A DNA stretch of 44,008 bases. It comes from a virus. Both the position numbers and the translations under genes were made by a program. The notes below the pieces were generated by a model, which was not told where the DNA came from, made no database searches, and saw only the letters and a program-made list of their open reading frames with translations. Position 1 is the stretch's first letter. Each line of letters opens with the position of its first letter. The stretch lies in the IMG/VR virus record IMGVR_UViG_3300042691_030650, positions 1-44,008 of that record. One strand, written 5' to 3'. This document shows, piece after piece, positions 4,611-38,562 of the stretch.

Positions 4611-4753
4611 GCGTCGTCGTCCTCCGGGAAGAGGTCCAGCGCTTCCGGGTCCGGGTCGGCCACGAGCAGCGACTGCGTTTCTTCGGCCAGATGGCGTTCC
4701 TGCTCGCGGTCCCACTCGGCGTGGTGCGTGGGGCGATCGTAGGCGCGGGTCAC
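4607..4753 (-). CDS. Small acidic protein, 48 aa
   Basis: Reads VTRAYDRPTHHAEWDREQER and ends in a strongly acidic tail (DPDPEALDLFPEDDDA). Start taken as GTG 4753, which overlaps the preceding stop as GTGA; its own stop overlaps the next ATG as ATGA. The acidic tail could mimic DNA or bind a basic partner, but this is speculation. No family recognised. Confidence 0.6.
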   Translation of the reverse strand: MTRAYDRPTHHAEWDREQERHLAEETQSLLVADPDPEALDLFPEDDDA

Positions 4754-4974
4754 GCCGCCACCCTCCCCGCAATCCGCGCCCGCTGCAACAGCTGCTTGAG
4801 CAGCGGACGGGACACGGTGACGGTCGACGGGTCCTTCTCGACCGGTTGAATGCACACGCGGTACATCCGGAATCGCTGGCCGTACGTGTGCATGTACGGG
4901 CGCGTGGCGCGCGTCACGGTCGCGCGCGTGCCGTCGTGGTCGACGAGCACCAAGGTGGTGCGGGGGTGTGTCAT
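4750..4974 (-). CDS. Small protein, 74 aa, paralogue of the 6305-6553 protein
   Basis: Starts MTHPRTTLVLVDHDGTRATV and continues with RFRMYRVCIQPVEKDPSTVTVSRPLLKQLLQRARIAGRVAA. The same core (DGT-ATV, RFRMYR, TVSR-LLKQL, and a C-terminal R-RVA) recurs in the protein at 6305-6553, so the two arose by duplication. It looks like a compact beta-rich fold with a basic C-terminal helix. AGGGACC precedes ATG 4974. Two-hairpin element A lies directly upstream. Function unknown. Confidence 0.7.
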   Translation of the reverse strand: MTHPRTTLVLVDHDGTRATVTRATRPYMHTYGQRFRMYRVCIQPVEKDPSTVTVSRPLLKQLLQRARIAGRVAA

Positions 4975-5002
4975 GGTCCCTGTCTGGTGTATGTTTGTCC
5001 CA

Positions 5003-5062
5003 CGGCGGCCCTGTGCCGCCGGTCCCTGCCTCGCACGGCGCCCGCGCTCTCACCCGCGGGCG
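5003..5062 (-). repeat. Two-hairpin intergenic element, copy A
   Basis: On the plus-strand map there are two hairpins. Hairpin 1 is CGGCGGC (5003-5009), loop CCTGT, GCCGCCG (5015-5021). Hairpin 2 is CGCCCGCG (5039-5046), an 8-base loop CTCTCACC, CGCGGGCG (5055-5062). On the transcribed minus strand hairpin 2 comes first, just after the stop of the 5072-5365 gene, and hairpin 1 precedes the ribosome site of the 74-aa gene. Compare copies at 6581-6640 and 6960-7003. There is no U-tract on the transcribed strand, so it is not a simple terminator. Confidence 0.7.
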
Positions 5063-5071
5063 TTCGTGTTT

Positions 5072-5365
5072 CTAGCCCACCCGCCAACAGCGGACGCCAC
5101 CCGCGACGCGACGAATCGTGATCCGCATCTCGGGGCGCGGGCACTGTCCCATCTGCCAGTAGCGATGCCGCGAACGGATGCGCGCCATCACACTGAGGGC
5201 GTCGTACTTGGCCGCCACGAAGAACGAGTCGCCGACCTCCATGGCCGAGAACGGGAGCGGCATGCGCTCCGTCAGCGGCGGGACAGGGACGCCCTTCTCA
5301 ATGACTACGGCGGGCATCTCAACGGGCGGGCGACCGCCTTTGACCAGCTTGACCGGGGCGGTCAT
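5072..5365 (-). CDS. Small phage protein with MEVGDSFFV motif, 97 aa
   Basis: Contains PLPFSAMEVGDSFFVAAKYDALSVMARIRSRHRYW, a pattern I recognise in small phage proteins (DUF7303-like), where PF..M.VGDSF is followed by a beta strand and a helix rich in R, and a C-terminal strand (EMRITIRRVAGGVRCWRVG). Probably a nucleic-acid-binding adaptor, but no function is proven. ATGA overlap with the preceding gene; the stop TAG is followed at once by two-hairpin element A. Confidence 0.65.
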   Translation of the reverse strand: MTAPVKLVKGGRPPVEMPAVVIEKGVPVPPLTERMPLPFSAMEVGDSFFVAAKYDALSVMARIRSRHRYWQMGQCPRPEMRITIRRVAGGVRCWRVG

Positions 5366-6279
5366 GCGGCGGGGGGATGGCGGTATACGTCGCGCACGAC
5401 ATCGGCGGACAGCGCGTCAAGCTGCTGAGTAAGCACGTCGGGCGGCACCGCACCGCCGCTGGCCTGCTTTACGTGCTGCACGAAGTCGTGAAGAAATCGC
5501 GCGTACCCGCGCCCACGCTCCGTCCGTACGTATCGGTCCATCTGCGGCAGGTCGCCACGGACGCCCCTCGCGCGCATCTCGCCGATCGCCACGCCGTTGA
5601 TCTGGAACGCGAGCGCCTGGGCAAGCGTGAGCCCGTCTGTCGGATCCTCGACGACGCCATCGTCGTCCGTGCCGTCGTCCTCCGGCTCGTCAGGAGCGAA
5701 CCGGCCGGTGAGCGCCAGCGTCGAGAGCACGGCGTCCACACTCGCCCGCTTCTTGGCCATCTTGAGCACGGTGTTCTCGGTGTCGCGCGGGCGATCGATG
5801 TACTTCGACTCCATGGTCGAGCACGAGCCGATCCCCTCGCCGAGCACGGCGCCGTCCTCGCGTCGCACCAGGCGGCACTTGACGACGTAGCGATACAGGC
5901 CTCTCGCGAGCCCGTGTGACTCGATTGCCTTGCGGTTGCCCTTGGGACCCGTCCACTTCGTTTTCGTCCAGGGCACCTCGCGGTCATGATCGATCTCGCG
6001 CTCGAGCACCTCGAGCTCGAGCGAGGCGCCGACCGAGAACGCCAGGCGCTCGGCGCCGGCCTTGAAAAGCGCCTTCTTGCCCTCGGTGCCGGGGATCTCG
6101 CCGTAGTCGACGCCGTCTTCGAGCACCTCGGCGACCATGGCGGCGATCTCCTTGTGCGCTTCGATGACTTCCGCCGGGTTCGAGGTCGGGCGCACGAGGC
6201 CGACCCGCCTCATGCCGAGAGTGTCACTGCCGGCGATGCTGCCGCGCCGGTCGACTGCCAGTGCCGTACTTGCTGCCAT
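5362..6279 (-). CDS. Phage protein of the GSCSTME/KMAKKRA family with fused C-terminal domain
   Basis: 305 residues in two parts. Residues 37-195 carry the hallmarks of a widespread phage and mobile-element family: GVDYGEIPGT, LFKAGAERLA, GEGIGSCSTMESKY and NTVLKMAKKRASVDAVL. Position and motif style suggest a DNA-recombination (annealase-like) role; this is inference. Residues 215-305 are a separate domain (GVRGDLPQMDRYVRTERGRGYARFL) closely similar to the free-standing protein at 6650-6937. AGGA lies before ATG 6279. It is coupled by ATGA to the next gene. Confidence 0.75.
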   Translation of the reverse strand: MAASTALAVDRRGSIAGSDTLGMRRVGLVRPTSNPAEVIEAHKEIAAMVAEVLEDGVDYGEIPGTEGKKALFKAGAERLAFSVGASLELEVLEREIDHDREVPWTKTKWTGPKGNRKAIESHGLARGLYRYVVKCRLVRREDGAVLGEGIGSCSTMESKYIDRPRDTENTVLKMAKKRASVDAVLSTLALTGRFAPDEPEDDGTDDDGVVEDPTDGLTLAQALAFQINGVAIGEMRARGVRGDLPQMDRYVRTERGRGYARFLHDFVQHVKQASGGAVPPDVLTQQLDALSADVVRDVYRHPPAA

Positions 6280-6304
6280 GTTGGGGTCCTGGTGCTGGTG
6301 AGGA

Positions 6305-6553
6305 CTACGCGACCCGGCTCGTGATGCGCGCGCCGCCGTTGATGAGCTGCTTCAGCAGCACGCGAGAGACGGTCACTTCCGCCGCGGCCTTGCCAGCCGG
6401 GTGGATGTGCAGGCGGTACATGCGGAATCGCGGGGTGCGGCTCCAGGCGAGCGGGCCGTCGACGCGGCGCACGGTGGCCGCGGTGCCGTCGGCCTGCTGC
6501 AGGGTGAGGGCGGTGCGCGATGCGCGCTGATCCTTCGAGGCTCCCTGTCTCAT
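6305..6553 (-). CDS. Small protein, 82 aa, paralogue of the 4750-4974 protein
   Basis: Core DGTAATVRRVDGP, RFRMYRLHIHP and EVTVSRVLLKQL aligns with the 74-aa protein at 4750-4974 (RFRMYR and TVSR-LLKQL identical). The N-terminus is longer and basic. Start ATG 6553 follows GGGGAGA. Two-hairpin element B lies upstream, in the same relative place as element A upstream of its paralogue. Function unknown. Confidence 0.7.
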   Translation of the reverse strand: MRQGASKDQRASRTALTLQQADGTAATVRRVDGPLAWSRTPRFRMYRLHIHPAGKAAAEVTVSRVLLKQLINGGARITSRVA

Positions 6554-6580
6554 TCTCCCCTCTGTGGTTACTGTTGATGA

Positions 6581-6640
6581 CGGTGGCCCCATGCCACCGC
6601 TCCCTGCTCTGCGACGACCCCGCGCTCTGACCCGCGGGGT
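6581..6640 (-). repeat. Two-hairpin intergenic element, copy B
   Basis: Hairpin 1 is CGGTGGC (6581-6587), loop CCCAT, GCCACCG (6593-6599). Hairpin 2 is ACCCCGCG (6617-6624), loop CTCTGACC, CGCGGGGT (6633-6640). Against copy A the stems differ at one pair in hairpin 1 and two pairs in hairpin 2, and each change is compensated on the other arm. Stem lengths, loop sizes (5 and 8) and loop 2 sequence are kept. That covariation supports selection on the folded RNA or DNA. Confidence 0.7.
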
Positions 6641-6649
6641 TTGTCGTTT

Positions 6650-6937
6650 CTACGAGGCGCGCGGCGTGACGACATCCGCCACGGCGCTATCGGTGAACTC
6701 GTGCAGGTGATCGGCGATGCGCTCCGCCGCCATCCCGCGCTCGTGGCAGTAGGCCACGAAGTCCGCCAGAAACCGGGCGATGCCCCTCCCGCGGTCTCGG
6801 CTGGCGTAGTCATCGAGGCGCCGCATCTCGCCGCGCACGCCGTAGGCCCGCAACTCGCCGCGCACATGCACGGCGCACTCCTGCCACCTCGCGCTGACAC
6901 GCGCGACGGTGGGCTTCGTTCGGTCGGTGGCACTCAT
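6650..6937 (-). CDS. Small protein, 95 aa, stand-alone copy of the 5362-6279 C-terminal domain
   Basis: Residues 30-95 (LRAYGVRGEMRRLDDYASRD, then RGRGIARFLADFVAYCHERG) align with residues 236-300 of the protein at 5362-6279 (MRARGVRGDLPQMDRYVRTE, then RGRGYARFLHDFVQHVKQAS). It looks like a helical domain with a conserved GVRG and RGRG.ARFL core. AGGGAG precedes ATG 6937. Its stop is followed by element B, and element C is upstream. It could be a regulatory or decoy subunit of the larger protein; untested. Confidence 0.7.
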   Translation of the reverse strand: MSATDRTKPTVARVSARWQECAVHVRGELRAYGVRGEMRRLDDYASRDRGRGIARFLADFVAYCHERGMAAERIADHLHEFTDSAVADVVTPRAS

Positions 6938-6959
6938 GGCTCCCTGTCCTATCTGTTGG

Positions 6960-7003
6960 GCGCGGAACCCCGCGCGTTGCGTGTTTCCCGGCTCTGACCC
7001 CGG
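6960..7003 (-). repeat. Two-hairpin intergenic element, copy C (divergent)
   Basis: Hairpin 1 is GCGCGG (6960-6965), loop AACC, CCGCGC (6970-6975). Hairpin 2 is a short CCGG (6988-6991), loop CTCTGACC, CCGG (7000-7003). The 8-base loop of hairpin 2 is identical to copy B and one base from copy A, while the stems are different. It lies upstream of the 95-aa gene at 6650-6937, so all three copies precede members of the duplicated block. Confidence 0.55.
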
Positions 7004-7047
7004 TCTTAACGTCCGCTCATGCTCACCAGCGGACTTCCCCCACCAAC

Positions 7048-7245
7048 TCAGCTTGCGGCCTTGCGCTGCTGTGCCTGCAACTCGACCTCGGATCGCTTCA
7101 CGAACAGGAGCCCCGCGACGGTCATGCTCGACAACTCGCCGCGCGCGACCATCGCCAGCACCGTCGGGCGCGTCACGCCGAGCGCCCGCGCCGCATCCTG
7201 CGCCCGCATCCAGTCGTGCGCCTTGCGCTGCCGTCCTTTCGCCAT
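7048..7245 (-). CDS. HTH_17/MerR-type DNA-binding protein, first early leftward gene
   Basis: 65 residues: RAQDAARALGVTRPTVLAMVARGELSSMTVAGLLFVKRSEVELQAQQ is a classic excisionase/MerR-like helix-turn-helix with a short wing and an arginine before the C-terminal helix. Start chosen at ATG 7245, six bases after GGGAG; an adjacent GTG would be too close to it. It is the first gene leftward of the divergent control region, the position of a Cro-like or early activator protein. It may bind the palindrome at 7269-7285. Confidence 0.75.
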   Translation of the reverse strand: MAKGRQRKAHDWMRAQDAARALGVTRPTVLAMVARGELSSMTVAGLLFVKRSEVELQAQQRKAAS

Positions 7246-7268
7246 CACTGTCTCCCGTATTCGTTTGC

Positions 7269-7285
7269 CCTAGCACCGTGCTAGG
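7269..7285. promoter_or_regulatory. Palindromic operator
   Basis: CCTAGCACCGTGCTAGG is a perfect 8-bp inverted repeat around one central base. It sits between the divergent HTH genes (7245 leftward, 7335 rightward) and just downstream of the leftward promoter's -10, where a bound dimer would block initiation or elongation. The repressor at 7335-7757 is the obvious candidate ligand. Confidence 0.75.
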
Positions 7286-7294
7286 CTGAAACAA

Positions 7295-7324
7295 AGTGTA
7301 TCACCGTGAGTCAGGATTTGTCAA
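7295..7324 (-). promoter_or_regulatory. Sigma70-like early leftward promoter
   Basis: Read on the minus strand: -35 TTGACA (plus 7319-7324, perfect consensus), 18-bp spacer, -10 TACACT (plus 7295-7300, 4 of 6). Transcription would start near 7288, inside or beside the operator, and run into the HTH gene at 7245 and the whole leftward early operon. Confidence 0.6.
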
Positions 7325-7334
7325 CGGGGGGGGC

Positions 7335-7757
7335 GTGACGTGGACTAGTGACGCGGTGCGGGAGCTGCGACTTGCCAGAAAGGAGAGTCAGGGGGACTTC
7401 GCGCGGGCGCTGGGCGTCAGCCGCGTGACGGTCAGCCGGTGGGAATCCGGGACAGAGGTGTCCGACCTCGGCGCCGCCGCCCTTGACGCCCTCGCTCGCG
7501 TCCCGCTCTCCCCGACGGCGGACTATCTGCGCGGCCTGACCGACGCCGCCCGCGCGGTGCGCGCCCTGCTGGACCAGCTGGAGCGGGACGCCGCCGACGC
7601 GGCGGTTATCGGCTTTGCGTCAGCAGCCGACGCTGATCCGCCACCGACAGCCGAATCGCCCCGTCCAGAAACAGGTGCAGGAGTTCGGCGTAGAGGACTC
7701 CGCTTGCACACCACGCCCGACGAATCACCCGGGAGCGATCCGGCGTCAGGACCGTGA
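7335..7757 (+). CDS. XRE-family repressor-like protein
   Basis: 140 residues. The N-terminus (ELRLARKESQGDFARALGVSRVTVSRWESGTEVSD) is a textbook Cro/C1 helix-turn-helix with WESG. A C-terminal helical part may form dimers, and the last 45 residues are low-complexity P/E/R. Start set at GTG 7335 because a G-rich ribosome site (GGGGGGGC) precedes it; an in-frame GTG at 7296 lacks one. It faces the leftward early genes across the operator, so it is the best candidate lysogeny repressor. The tail overlaps the opposing 7606-7878 gene by 150 bp. Confidence 0.8.
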   Translation: MTWTSDAVRELRLARKESQGDFARALGVSRVTVSRWESGTEVSDLGAAALDALARVPLSPTADYLRGLTDAARAVRALLDQLERDAADAAVIGFASAADADPPPTAESPRPETGAGVRRRGLRLHTTPDESPGSDPASGP

Positions 7758-8516: not shown

Positions 8517-8949
8517 CCCCCCCCGCTGCCCCGTCTGCGCCAGCGAGCGCATCCCTGGCGTCGGCTCGTGCGCGAACTGCGGCGAGGCGTTCCCCAAAGC
8601 GCCGTGGGTGGCGTCGTTCGACGTGCACGACGACCCGCTGCCGGACTACTACACGCCGCCGAGCACGGACACGGCCACGATCTACCGGGCGCTCATGGAG
8701 GCCCGGGCGCTCGAGTATGCGGGAGATGTGGTGGGGGCGACGGCGATTTACGAGCGGGTCTGCAAGACGCGGACGCGGGACGGGATGGCGTACAAGCGGC
8801 TGGCGGTCATCTACCGGCGGGGGAAGCAGCCGGCGCACGAGGAGCGCGTCGTTCGGCTGGCGTTGGCGCACATCCCGTCGGGGCCGACCAGCTGGTTCGT
8901 GGTCCGGTTGGCGAAGATTCTGGGGGAGCAGAAAAAGCCCCACCGGTGA
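8500..8949 (+). CDS. Zinc-ribbon plus helical-repeat (TPR-like) protein, 149 aa
   Basis: Residues 9-29 form a zinc ribbon (CPVC ... CANCGEAF). Residues 55-140 are paired amphipathic helices resembling a TPR (YRALMEARALEYAGDVVGATAIYERV, AYKRLAVIYRRGKQ, ERVVRLALAHI). GTG 8500 overlaps the upstream gene by 17 bp, with GAGGAG at 8484-8489. Probably a cytoplasmic protein-protein adaptor working with the two membrane proteins upstream; no function is known. The stop lies in a terminator stem that serves the opposite strand. Confidence 0.65.
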   Translation: MSVDSSPPRCPVCASERIPGVGSCANCGEAFPKAPWVASFDVHDDPLPDYYTPPSTDTATIYRALMEARALEYAGDVVGATAIYERVCKTRTRDGMAYKRLAVIYRRGKQPAHEERVVRLALAHIPSGPTSWFVVRLAKILGEQKKPHR

Positions 8950-8958
8950 CGGTGGGGC
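8932..8958 (-). terminator. Rho-independent terminator (minus strand)
   Basis: Arms GCCCCACCG (8937-8945) and CGGTGGGGC (8950-8958) with loop GTGA give a perfect 9-bp GC-rich stem. On the minus strand the stem is followed directly by TTTTT (plus A-run 8932-8936). It would stop transcripts of the 9125-9733 regulator and any late transcript reading through it, protecting the rightward operon from antisense RNA. Confidence 0.85.
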
Positions 8959-9767: not shown

Positions 9768-9792
9768 GTGTCGGCGTCACTTGCGCCGACAC
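9768..9792. promoter_or_regulatory. Operator: 9-bp inverted repeat at transcription start
   Basis: GTGTCGGCG (9768-9776) and CGCCGACAC (9784-9792) are perfect complements with a 7-base spacer. It starts 4 bp downstream of the -10 of the promoter for the 9125-9733 regulator, so bound protein would repress that promoter. A second small palindrome, GGGGCAGTGCCCC (9743-9755), lies in the leader. Confidence 0.7.
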
Positions 9793-26910: not shown

Positions 26911-27311
26911 CAGTCCTCCGGAGTCTCGTCAGGGGCGTCCGCGCGCTTCATGCGGGACATGGCGTAGGATAGGAACGCGGCGTCGGCCTCGCGCACGAGC
27001 GCGACATCAAGGGGGGTCAACGTGGTCCCCGTCAGCGTCTGGTAAGCCAGCATCTCGGTATACGGGATCGCGCTCACGCCCCCCATCCCGGCCGAGCGGG
27101 TGCCGCTCAGCTCCCCGAACACCTGCCACGCCCGCGCGGCGATCGGGGGAAGCGGCGGGCCGACGATCTCGTCAAGCACCGCCGCCATCAGCTCCGGCTG
27201 CGCTTCGACCATCCCGATCAACTGGTCTCGGTGGGTCAGTTCCTCACTGACCCGCGCGCTCAGGCGGAAGTGGTGCTCGACGAAGGCGCGGAAGGCGTCG
27301 AGGACGGGCCG
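26910..27311 (-). CDS. Tail assembly chaperone, frameshift extension (GT-like; residues after -1 shift)
   Basis: This frame is open for 133 codons from 27311 to its stop. It has no ATG start with a ribosome site; the first candidate is a TTG at 27221. It is in the -1 frame of the 27260-27766 gene and joins it at TTTTTTC (27311-27317), giving a 285-residue fusion. It reads RPVLDAFRAFVEHHFRLSAR and later WQVFGELSGT and MLAYQTLTG. This is the gpG/gpGT arrangement of siphovirus tail chaperones, which load the tape measure. Stop overlaps the tape measure start (TGATG). Confidence 0.82.
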   Translation of the reverse strand, partial: RPVLDAFRAFVEHHFRLSARVSEELTHRDQLIGMVEAQPELMAAVLDEIVGPPLPPIAARAWQVFGELSGTRSAGMGGVSAIPYTEMLAYQTLTGTTLTPLDVALVREADAAFLSYAMSRMKRADAPDETPED

Positions 27312-27789: not shown

Positions 27790-27811
27790 GGGGGCGGCCC
27801 GTGCCGCCCCC
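27790..27811 (-). terminator. Terminator-like hairpin after the major tail gene
   Basis: GGGGGCGGC (27790-27798), loop CCGT, GCCGCCCCC (27803-27811): a perfect 9-bp stem, 9 bp past the major tail gene's stop on the minus strand, followed by TTCCCCTTCTTC. The weak T-rich tail suggests partial termination, which would make major tail mRNA more abundant than downstream chaperone and tape-measure mRNA. Confidence 0.6.
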
Positions 27812-30685: not shown

Positions 30686-30742
30686 GATGGGATGCGTGAA
30701 GGGTGAGCGGGGCGCCACGAGGGCGCCCCGTCAGAGGATCGG

Positions 30743-38407: not shown

Positions 38408-38562
38408 GGGGTGCCCGCCTGAATTTCGCGAATTATGGCAATTTCGCCGTGTTTTTCGGGGGGTCCTTTTACCCCCTTCCTACGCGTACGCGCGTACGCA
38501 GTAGATAGAAAGAGAGAGAGAGAAGTGTTGTTATAATTCGCAGAATACTGGTACGTAAGCAC
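38408..38562 (-). promoter_or_regulatory. AT-richer non-coding island, candidate replication origin/regulatory region
   Basis: 155 bp between primase and RusA genes, far richer in A/T than the rest. It contains tandem GCGTACGC (38484-38499) inside a near-palindrome CTAC..GTAG (38480-38504), and a purine tract of repeated GA (38509-38525). There is a GGGGG/CCCCC hairpin (38459-38476), palindrome TTCGCGAA (38425-38432) and CGAATTATGGCAA at 38429-38441. That 13-mer recurs inverted at 38589-38601 inside the primase 3' end, with a partial copy at 38531-38540. TATAAC on the minus strand (38530-38535) could be a -10, but no good -35 was found. Confidence 0.5.

What the first reader, a model, noticed from the sequence alone, without database searches (positions are those of the whole stretch)
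5003..7003. Three copies of a covarying two-hairpin element in the 5' leaders of the duplicated genes
Copies at 5003-5062, 6581-6640 and 6960-7003 each hold two hairpins. Between A and B, hairpin 1 changes one pair and hairpin 2 two pairs, always on both arms, while loop sizes stay 5 and 8. The 8-base loop of the second hairpin is CTCTSACC in all three copies, even in C, where the stems are unrelated. This fits a structured leader (protein-binding or translational control) or a DNA site rather than a terminator. With the paralogues it forms a cassette not matched by any system I know.
Basis: partly seen in the sequence, partly recalled or inferred. Interest (0 to 1): 0.7.

Follow-up and report, generated by a model that had tools for sequence, protein, structure and literature searches.

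The report
Paired RNA hairpins between phage genes
An uncultured phage carries a 72-base two-hairpin module between its early genes in two duplicated copies whose helices changed on both arms together while one loop stayed nearly the same, plus a weaker third site, which points to an undescribed folded RNA control element, although its function is unproven.

Summary
A and B are one ungapped 72-nt module on the minus strand, from the stop codon of the upstream gene to the end of the second hairpin. I found a lower 4-bp helix below the GGTSAGAG hairpin, set off by a conserved AA/C internal loop. A and B differ by six double-sided, pair-preserving changes; no pair is broken. The module is 74% identical, against 62% for the downstream paralogues. 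C is a separate, weaker site: its 4-bp hairpin shows exactly GGTCAGAG (9 of 200,000 shuffles). All sites lie in intercistronic leaders of the predicted early leftward operon. The only relative found (L006) has hairpins at equivalent positions; two share a different loop word, CTGGCA (11 of 5,000 shuffles). Rfam, phage records and 46 terminase relatives give no homologue. Most likely this is a cis-acting mRNA leader element whose loop is read by a trans-acting factor. The factor and the effect are unknown. A sense-strand terminator is excluded; an antisense terminator, an RNA-processing hairpin and a put-like element remain. New variant of a known kind, on thin evidence (two paralogous copies).

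The parts
5003..5074 (-). Module A, 72 nt: TAG stop of the upstream gene to the end of hairpin 1
   Evidence: ungapped alignment with B, 53/72 identical; common fold -37.0 kcal/mol
5034..5068 (-). A hairpin 2: lower helix CACG/CGTG (5065-5068 with 5034-5037), AA/C internal loop, 8-bp upper helix 5039-5062, loop GGTGAGAG 5047-5054
5003..5021 (-). A hairpin 1 CGGCGGC-ACAGG-GCCGCCG
5021..5028 (-). A linker CAGGGACC, a second copy of the start-proximal sequence of the downstream gene
4975..4982 (-). CAGGGACC directly before the ATG of P0001
4750..4974 (-). P0001, 74 aa, orphan small protein downstream of A
   Evidence: 53% identical to P0004; no Pfam or PHROG family
5072..5365 (-). P0002, 97 aa, upstream of A; its stop codon is the first triplet of the module
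   Evidence: weak DUF7303 match below cut-off; not similar to P0005
5362..6279 (-). P0003, 305 aa, phrog_10048 (unknown function); C-terminal domain paralogous to P0005
6581..6652 (-). Module B, 72 nt
   Evidence: common fold is its minimum free energy fold, -34.7 kcal/mol
6612..6646 (-). B hairpin 2: lower helix CGAC/GTCG (6643-6646 with 6612-6615), AA/C internal loop, upper helix 6617-6640, loop GGTCAGAG 6625-6632
6581..6599 (-). B hairpin 1 CGGTGGC-ATGGG-GCCACCG; the loop holds an in-frame ATG (6592) with CAGGGAG upstream, a possible alternative start of P0004
6305..6553 (-). P0004, 82 aa, paralogue of P0001
6650..6937 (-). P0005, 95 aa, paralogue of the C-terminal domain of P0003; upstream of B, downstream of C
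6988..7003 (-). C hairpin CCGG-GGTCAGAG-CCGG, same loop as B
   Evidence: 9 of 200,000 shuffles; scores at chance with the A/B model
6960..6975 (-). C second hairpin GCGCGG-GGTT-CCGCGC, preceded by GAAACACGCAAC (A has GAAACACGAAC)
7011..7034 (-).
6938..6946 (-). CAGGGAGCC directly before the ATG of P0005
7048..7248 (-). P0006, HTH_17 excisionase/regulator-like, first gene of the leftward operon
7295..7324 (-). Predicted early leftward promoter TTGACA-18-TACACT with TG

Best explanation
The minus-strand 72-nt module is a cis-acting folded element of the early polycistronic mRNA. It begins at the stop codon of one gene and ends 28 nt (A) before the start codon of the next. In it a 12-bp interrupted hairpin presents an 8-nt loop GGTSAGAG; a single-stranded Shine-Dalgarno-like linker (CAGGGASC) and a second hairpin follow. 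Most likely the loop is recognised by a trans-acting RNA-binding factor of the phage or host that acts on the downstream reading frame (translation start or local mRNA fate), and the C leader carries a simpler hairpin with the same loop for the same factor. Shown here: the sequence, the covariation, the conservation relative to coding sequence, the loop shared with C, and the position in leaders of a predicted operon. Inferred: that the module acts as RNA, that a protein binds the loop, that the effect is on the downstream gene. The identity of the factor is unknown; the paralogous small proteins (P0001/P0004, P0005/P0003 C-terminus) are candidates only because they sit next to the sites.
For: Six compensatory double changes, none broken, with the AA/C internal loop and loop length kept. 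The similarity starts exactly at the stop codon of unrelated upstream genes (P0002 and P0005) and ends at hairpin 1: 74% identity inside, 46% in the rest of the leader, 62% in the downstream genes. Both leaders fold better than shuffles on the sense strand (z -2.8 and -3.0). Exact loop word in the C leader. GGTNAGAG occurs in the window only at these sites. Relative L006 has a similar small-gene order and hairpins at both leaders, two of which share a loop word of their own, CTGGCA. Another phage contig, L026, has an 11-bp intercistronic hairpin with loop GGTGAGAG above a 4-bp helix.
Against: Only two full copies, both in one genome and from one duplication; no orthologue of the module was found. 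C scores at chance with the model. No transcript data. Folding on the + strand is as good (B z -4.2), so the strand is not proven by energy. The loop word is not kept in L006. The candidate proteins have no recognised RNA-binding fold.
Confidence: 0.5

Rival explanations
1. Intercistronic mRNA processing or stability hairpins (RNase III-type sites, or 3'-end protectors placed right after a stop codon), with no loop-specific factor.
For: Hairpin 2 starts within a few bases of the stop codon in A, B and L006; interrupted double helix with an asymmetric internal loop; other leaders of the window also hold 8-9 bp hairpins.
Against: Does not explain the fixed loop in A, B and C; the helix (12 bp) is short for a classic RNase III site (own knowledge).
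Confidence: 0.18
2. Intrinsic terminators of the opposite (+) strand, limiting antisense transcription into the early operon.
For: The scan lists both as its strongest + strand terminator-like sites (10 and 9 pairs, tails CGTGTTTCTA and TGTCGTTTCT); 7 T in 12 nt after the stem; A, B and the second C hairpin share a GTTTC-rich + strand tail.
Against: The lower helix, which covaries at three pairs, ties up the supposed T tract; loop identity and hairpin 1 are unexplained; a terminator-like site of this phage at 8937-8958 has a clean TTTTTCT tail; no + strand gene is called to the left of the sites.
Confidence: 0.12
3. No selection on RNA: the paired changes arose by templated correction between the arms of an inverted repeat, or the module is a mobile or recombination-prone palindrome.
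For: Only one comparison is available; arms of near-perfect palindromes can be copied from one another in one step (own knowledge); the module's boundary at the stop codon of unrelated genes looks transposable.
Against: Arm copying would erase the asymmetric AA/C loop, which is kept; loop kept; module more conserved than coding sequence.
Confidence: 0.1
4. A put-like antitermination RNA: the nascent two-hairpin RNA itself modifies RNA polymerase.
For: HK022 put RNAs are about 70 nt with two stem-loops in early transcripts (PMC9378689); the module is 72 nt, two hairpins, in the predicted early operon.
Against: Two modules in one operon, 0.6 and 2.2 kb from the predicted promoter; long linker between stems; no Rfam match; the scan listed only weak leftward terminator-like sites inside the operon.
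Confidence: 0.06
5. A DNA site: a protein-bound palindrome or a hairpin extruded from single-stranded DNA.
For: The stems are also inverted repeats of DNA; recombination genes (Sak4, Gp157, integrase) lie nearby.
Against: Stem sequence is free while the loop is fixed, the reverse of a duplex-DNA operator; sites sit in leaders.
Confidence: 0.04

Closest known systems
T4/RB69 gene 43 translational operator
   Same: Hairpin about 40 nt upstream of a start codon whose loop is conserved between relatives, read by a phage protein (PMC3014915)
   Different: Single hairpin before a polymerase gene; here two hairpins, two to three sites, unknown factor, unrelated sequence
Cluster K mycobacteriophage SAS/ESAS
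   Same: Short sequence right before start codons plus inverted repeats upstream, repeated at several genes of one phage, sequence partly phage-specific (PMC3203893)
   Different: 13-bp SAS GGGATAGGAGCCC not matched within two deviations; ESAS repeats conserve arm sequence with variable spacers, here arms vary and the loop is fixed
HK022 put RNA
   Same: About 70 nt, two stem-loops, early transcripts (PMC9378689)
   Different: Two modules per operon, at intercistronic positions, long linker, no Rfam match
Lambda nut (boxA-boxB)
   Same: Hairpin whose loop is read by a trans factor and differs between phages (own knowledge)
   Different: No boxA within the limits scanned; 8-nt loop and 12-bp interrupted stem instead of a short stem with 5-nt loop

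Membership tests
Any Rfam 15 family | covariance-model match | tested here: not met
   0 matches at gathering score in the window; only a palindrome at 7269-7297 at E 1.2 with lax filters
Intrinsic terminator, sense strand | GC hairpin followed by a T run | tested here: not met
   1 to 3 T in 12 nt after each A and B hairpin
Intrinsic terminator, antisense strand | GC hairpin followed by a T run | tested here: inconclusive
   7 T in 12 nt, interrupted by G and C
HK022 put RNA | about 70 nt with two stem-loops | tested here: met
   72 nt, two hairpins
HK022 put RNA | antitermination without a phage protein | not testable with these tools
   needs a transcription assay
Lambda nut site | boxA upstream of the hairpin | tested here: not met
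   no CGCTCTTTAACA-like site with up to 3 mismatches, no GCTCTTTA/GCTCTTAC with up to 1, in minus 4750-7300
Cluster K SAS | GGGATAGGAGCCC with at most two deviations before the start codon | tested here: not met
   the start-proximal sequence is GGACAGGGAGCC or AGACAGGGACC, more than two deviations without gaps
Phage translational operator (gp43-like) | loop bound by the product of the gene it controls | not testable with these tools
   needs a binding assay; the P0004-family model (pLDDT 73) gave no significant fold match
RNase III processing site | cleavage of the double-stranded part | not testable with these tools
   needs RNA mapping

The most novel reading that the evidence does not exclude
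Each phage of this kind uses its own loop word, shared by hairpins in the leaders of several early genes (GGTSAGAG here, CTGGCA in L006), so that one fast-evolving phage-encoded RNA-binding protein controls a small set of early genes as an RNA-level regulon.
Probability: 0.2. Interest if true: 0.65.

Novelty: new variant of a known kind. Interest (0 to 1): 0.42.

Why it matters
If the loop is read by a phage protein, this would be a new phage RNA operator with several sites in one operon, next to orphan small proteins that could be its reader, and a possible source of new RNA-protein tethering pairs. The L006 comparison turns it into a testable statement about phage-specific loop recognition.

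Tried and rejected
Third full copy at C: rejected by the model score. Widespread element: the exact core CGCGGGTSAGAGCGCG occurs in 24 other IMG/VR stretches, most with little or no further pairing (0-3 pairs); only L026 (11 bp, intercistronic) and L020 (8 bp, but inside an open reading frame) extend the stem by four or more pairs. A general rule that intercistronic hairpins of one phage share loop words: 12 sharing pairs against 5.4 in shuffles (maximum 13), over loci mostly from terminase relatives; six of the 12 come from one repeat family in L019, so no general rule. Terminase relatives as a source of orthologues: none of 46 records holds P0003 or the P0001/P0004 family, and many are fragments. 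Genome collection: two scans found nothing. Homology of P0005 with L006's P0009 and of P0006 with P0010: only marginal (40 and 34 of 2,000 shuffles). Loop-linker pseudoknot: inspected by eye, the register that pairs the covarying loop and linker bases fails at the neighbours. Sm-like fold of the P0004 family: top Foldseek rows were Sm proteins but not significant (E 0.12, TM about 0.4), and the second look put others first (Z 6.1), so nothing is concluded. boxA: none found. Literature: seven searches found no description of such an element in open papers.

Full report
WHAT IS THERE. The window is a 44,008-base IMG/VR virus record, 69.5% GC, a tailed-phage genome or large part of one with terminase, portal, major head protein, primase, helicase and a Sak4/Gp157/single-strand-binding module. 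Most genes called are on the minus strand. A HTH_3 repressor-like gene (7338-7757 +) faces a HTH_17 excisionase/regulator-like gene (7048-7248 -), with a promoter-like site for leftward transcription at 7324-7295. From there the leftward gene order is P0006, [C leader], P0005, [B leader], P0004, P0003, P0002, [A leader], P0001, a small ORF, Gp157, Sak4, single-strand-binding protein, integrase side. I call this the early operon; that is a prediction.

PARALOGY. P0001 and P0004 are 53% identical; P0005 matches the C-terminal domain of P0003 at 45%. So a unit containing a P0003-like C-terminus, the module and a P0001-like gene was probably duplicated. P0002, which precedes A, is not related to P0005, which precedes B.

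THE MODULE. Aligned on the sense strand, A and B match without gaps over 72 nt, from the TAG stop codon of the upstream gene to the last base of hairpin 1: 53/72 identical. The downstream genes are 62% identical and the remaining leader 46%. On the common structure 19 of 19 pairs are standard in both, six differ on both sides, none on one side only. Of 19 differences 12 are in these six pairs; the seven others are one loop base (G/C at position 4 of GGTSAGAG), four linker bases and two loop bases of hairpin 1. With independent substitution this pattern has a chance of about 1e-8; this ignores templated copying between arms, which I treat as a rival. In A the best fold of the isolated 72 nt lacks the lower helix and is 1.7 kcal/mol better than the common one; in the whole leader the lower helix is present.

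C. The C leader holds three hairpins: GTCCGCT-GGTGAGCATG-AGCGGAC, CCGG-GGTCAGAG-CCGG and GCGCGG-GGTT-CCGCGC. The middle one has the loop of B exactly. In 200,000 dinucleotide shuffles of this leader the loop word arose in a hairpin of at least 4 bp nine times. GGTNAGAG occurs at no other site of the window on either strand. With the A/B covariance model the site is at chance level, so it is a related loop, not a copy of the module. GAAACACG(C)AAC precedes a GC hairpin in both A and C.

RELATIVES. The P0001/P0004 family was found in one other record only, L006 (P0008, 54-61% identical). L006 has the order small gene, leader, 97-aa gene (P0009), leader, P0008; similarity of the 97-aa gene to P0005 is marginal. 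Its two leaders carry hairpins: CGCAGG-CTGGCA-CCTGCG before P0009 and GCCCCGG-(C)-GCG-CTGGCA-CGC-CCGGGGC right after the stop before P0008. A shared loop word of six or more bases arose in 11 of 5,000 shuffled pairs of these leaders. So the positions carry hairpins in both phages, but the loop word differs. P0003 relatives at 45% (L004, L005) show no such module. None of 46 terminase-related records had P0003 or the small family. Elsewhere, the core CGCGGGTSAGAGCGCG gave 24 stretches in IMG/VR; L026 has it on an 11-bp stem above a 2x2 internal loop and a 4-bp helix, between two genes of the same strand. By base composition a stem extended by seven or more pairs would be expected about 0.004 times among 24 hits (own estimate). 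L020 has the same 26 nt as A, but inside an open reading frame.

STRAND AND TERMINATION. After the A and B hairpins the sense strand has 1-3 T in 12; the other strand has 7, and the terminator scan lists both sites on +. A terminator-like site of this phage on the minus strand at 8937-8958 has TTTTTCT. The three covarying pairs of the lower helix lie in the supposed + strand T tract, which speaks against a plain terminator, but does not exclude it.

START-PROXIMAL SEQUENCE. CAGGGASC lies in the linker of both modules and again at the start of P0001 and P0005, and just inside the called start of P0004. The base S agrees within each of A and B. B hairpin 1 shows an in-frame ATG in its loop (6592). 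I record this as unexplained.

PROTEINS. The P0004-family model (three sequences, pLDDT 73) is a small beta protein with one helix; matches to solved and viral structures are not significant. P0005 is predicted helical at low confidence.

VERDICT. A real, well-supported covarying two-hairpin module in two copies and a weaker third site. Best reading: an RNA leader element with a recognised loop. Function and partner are inferred. Interest is limited by having one paralogous comparison and no orthologues.

Noticed in passing
5021-5028, 6599-6606, 4975-4982, 6540-6547, 6938-6946 (minus): CAGGGASC is repeated in the linker of each module and near the start codons of P0001, P0004 and P0005; the variable base agrees within each of A and B.
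   Followed up: partly
6592 (minus): In-frame ATG in the loop of B hairpin 1, with CAGGGAG upstream, would lengthen P0004 by 13 residues (95 instead of 82).
   Followed up: no
7269-7285: Palindrome CCTAGCACGGTGCTAGG just downstream of the leftward promoter-like site, operator-like; gives only a weak Rfam match.
   Followed up: no
38408-38562: Intergenic stretch of 49% GC in a 70% GC genome, with a CT run and GCGTACGCGCGTACGC palindromes, next to the primase gene; possible replication origin.
   Followed up: no
9768-9792: 9-bp hairpin GTGTCGGCG-CAAGTGA-CGCCGACAC near a second leftward promoter-like site (9825-9797).
   Followed up: no
27233-27253, 27790-27811, 30708-30730: 8-9 bp hairpins, one in each of three late intercistronic gaps, with unrelated loops.
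   Followed up: partly
L026:4538-4553 (minus): Unrelated phage contig with an 11-bp intercistronic hairpin bearing the same GGTGAGAG loop.
   Followed up: partly
L019: Intergenic hairpin TGGGCATGTCAATAAACTGCCCA repeated in four gaps of one contig.
   Followed up: no
L138:1-150: Tandem repeats of a gcgcgtcgagcgccacgggcgaccaga-like unit at the contig end.
   Followed up: no
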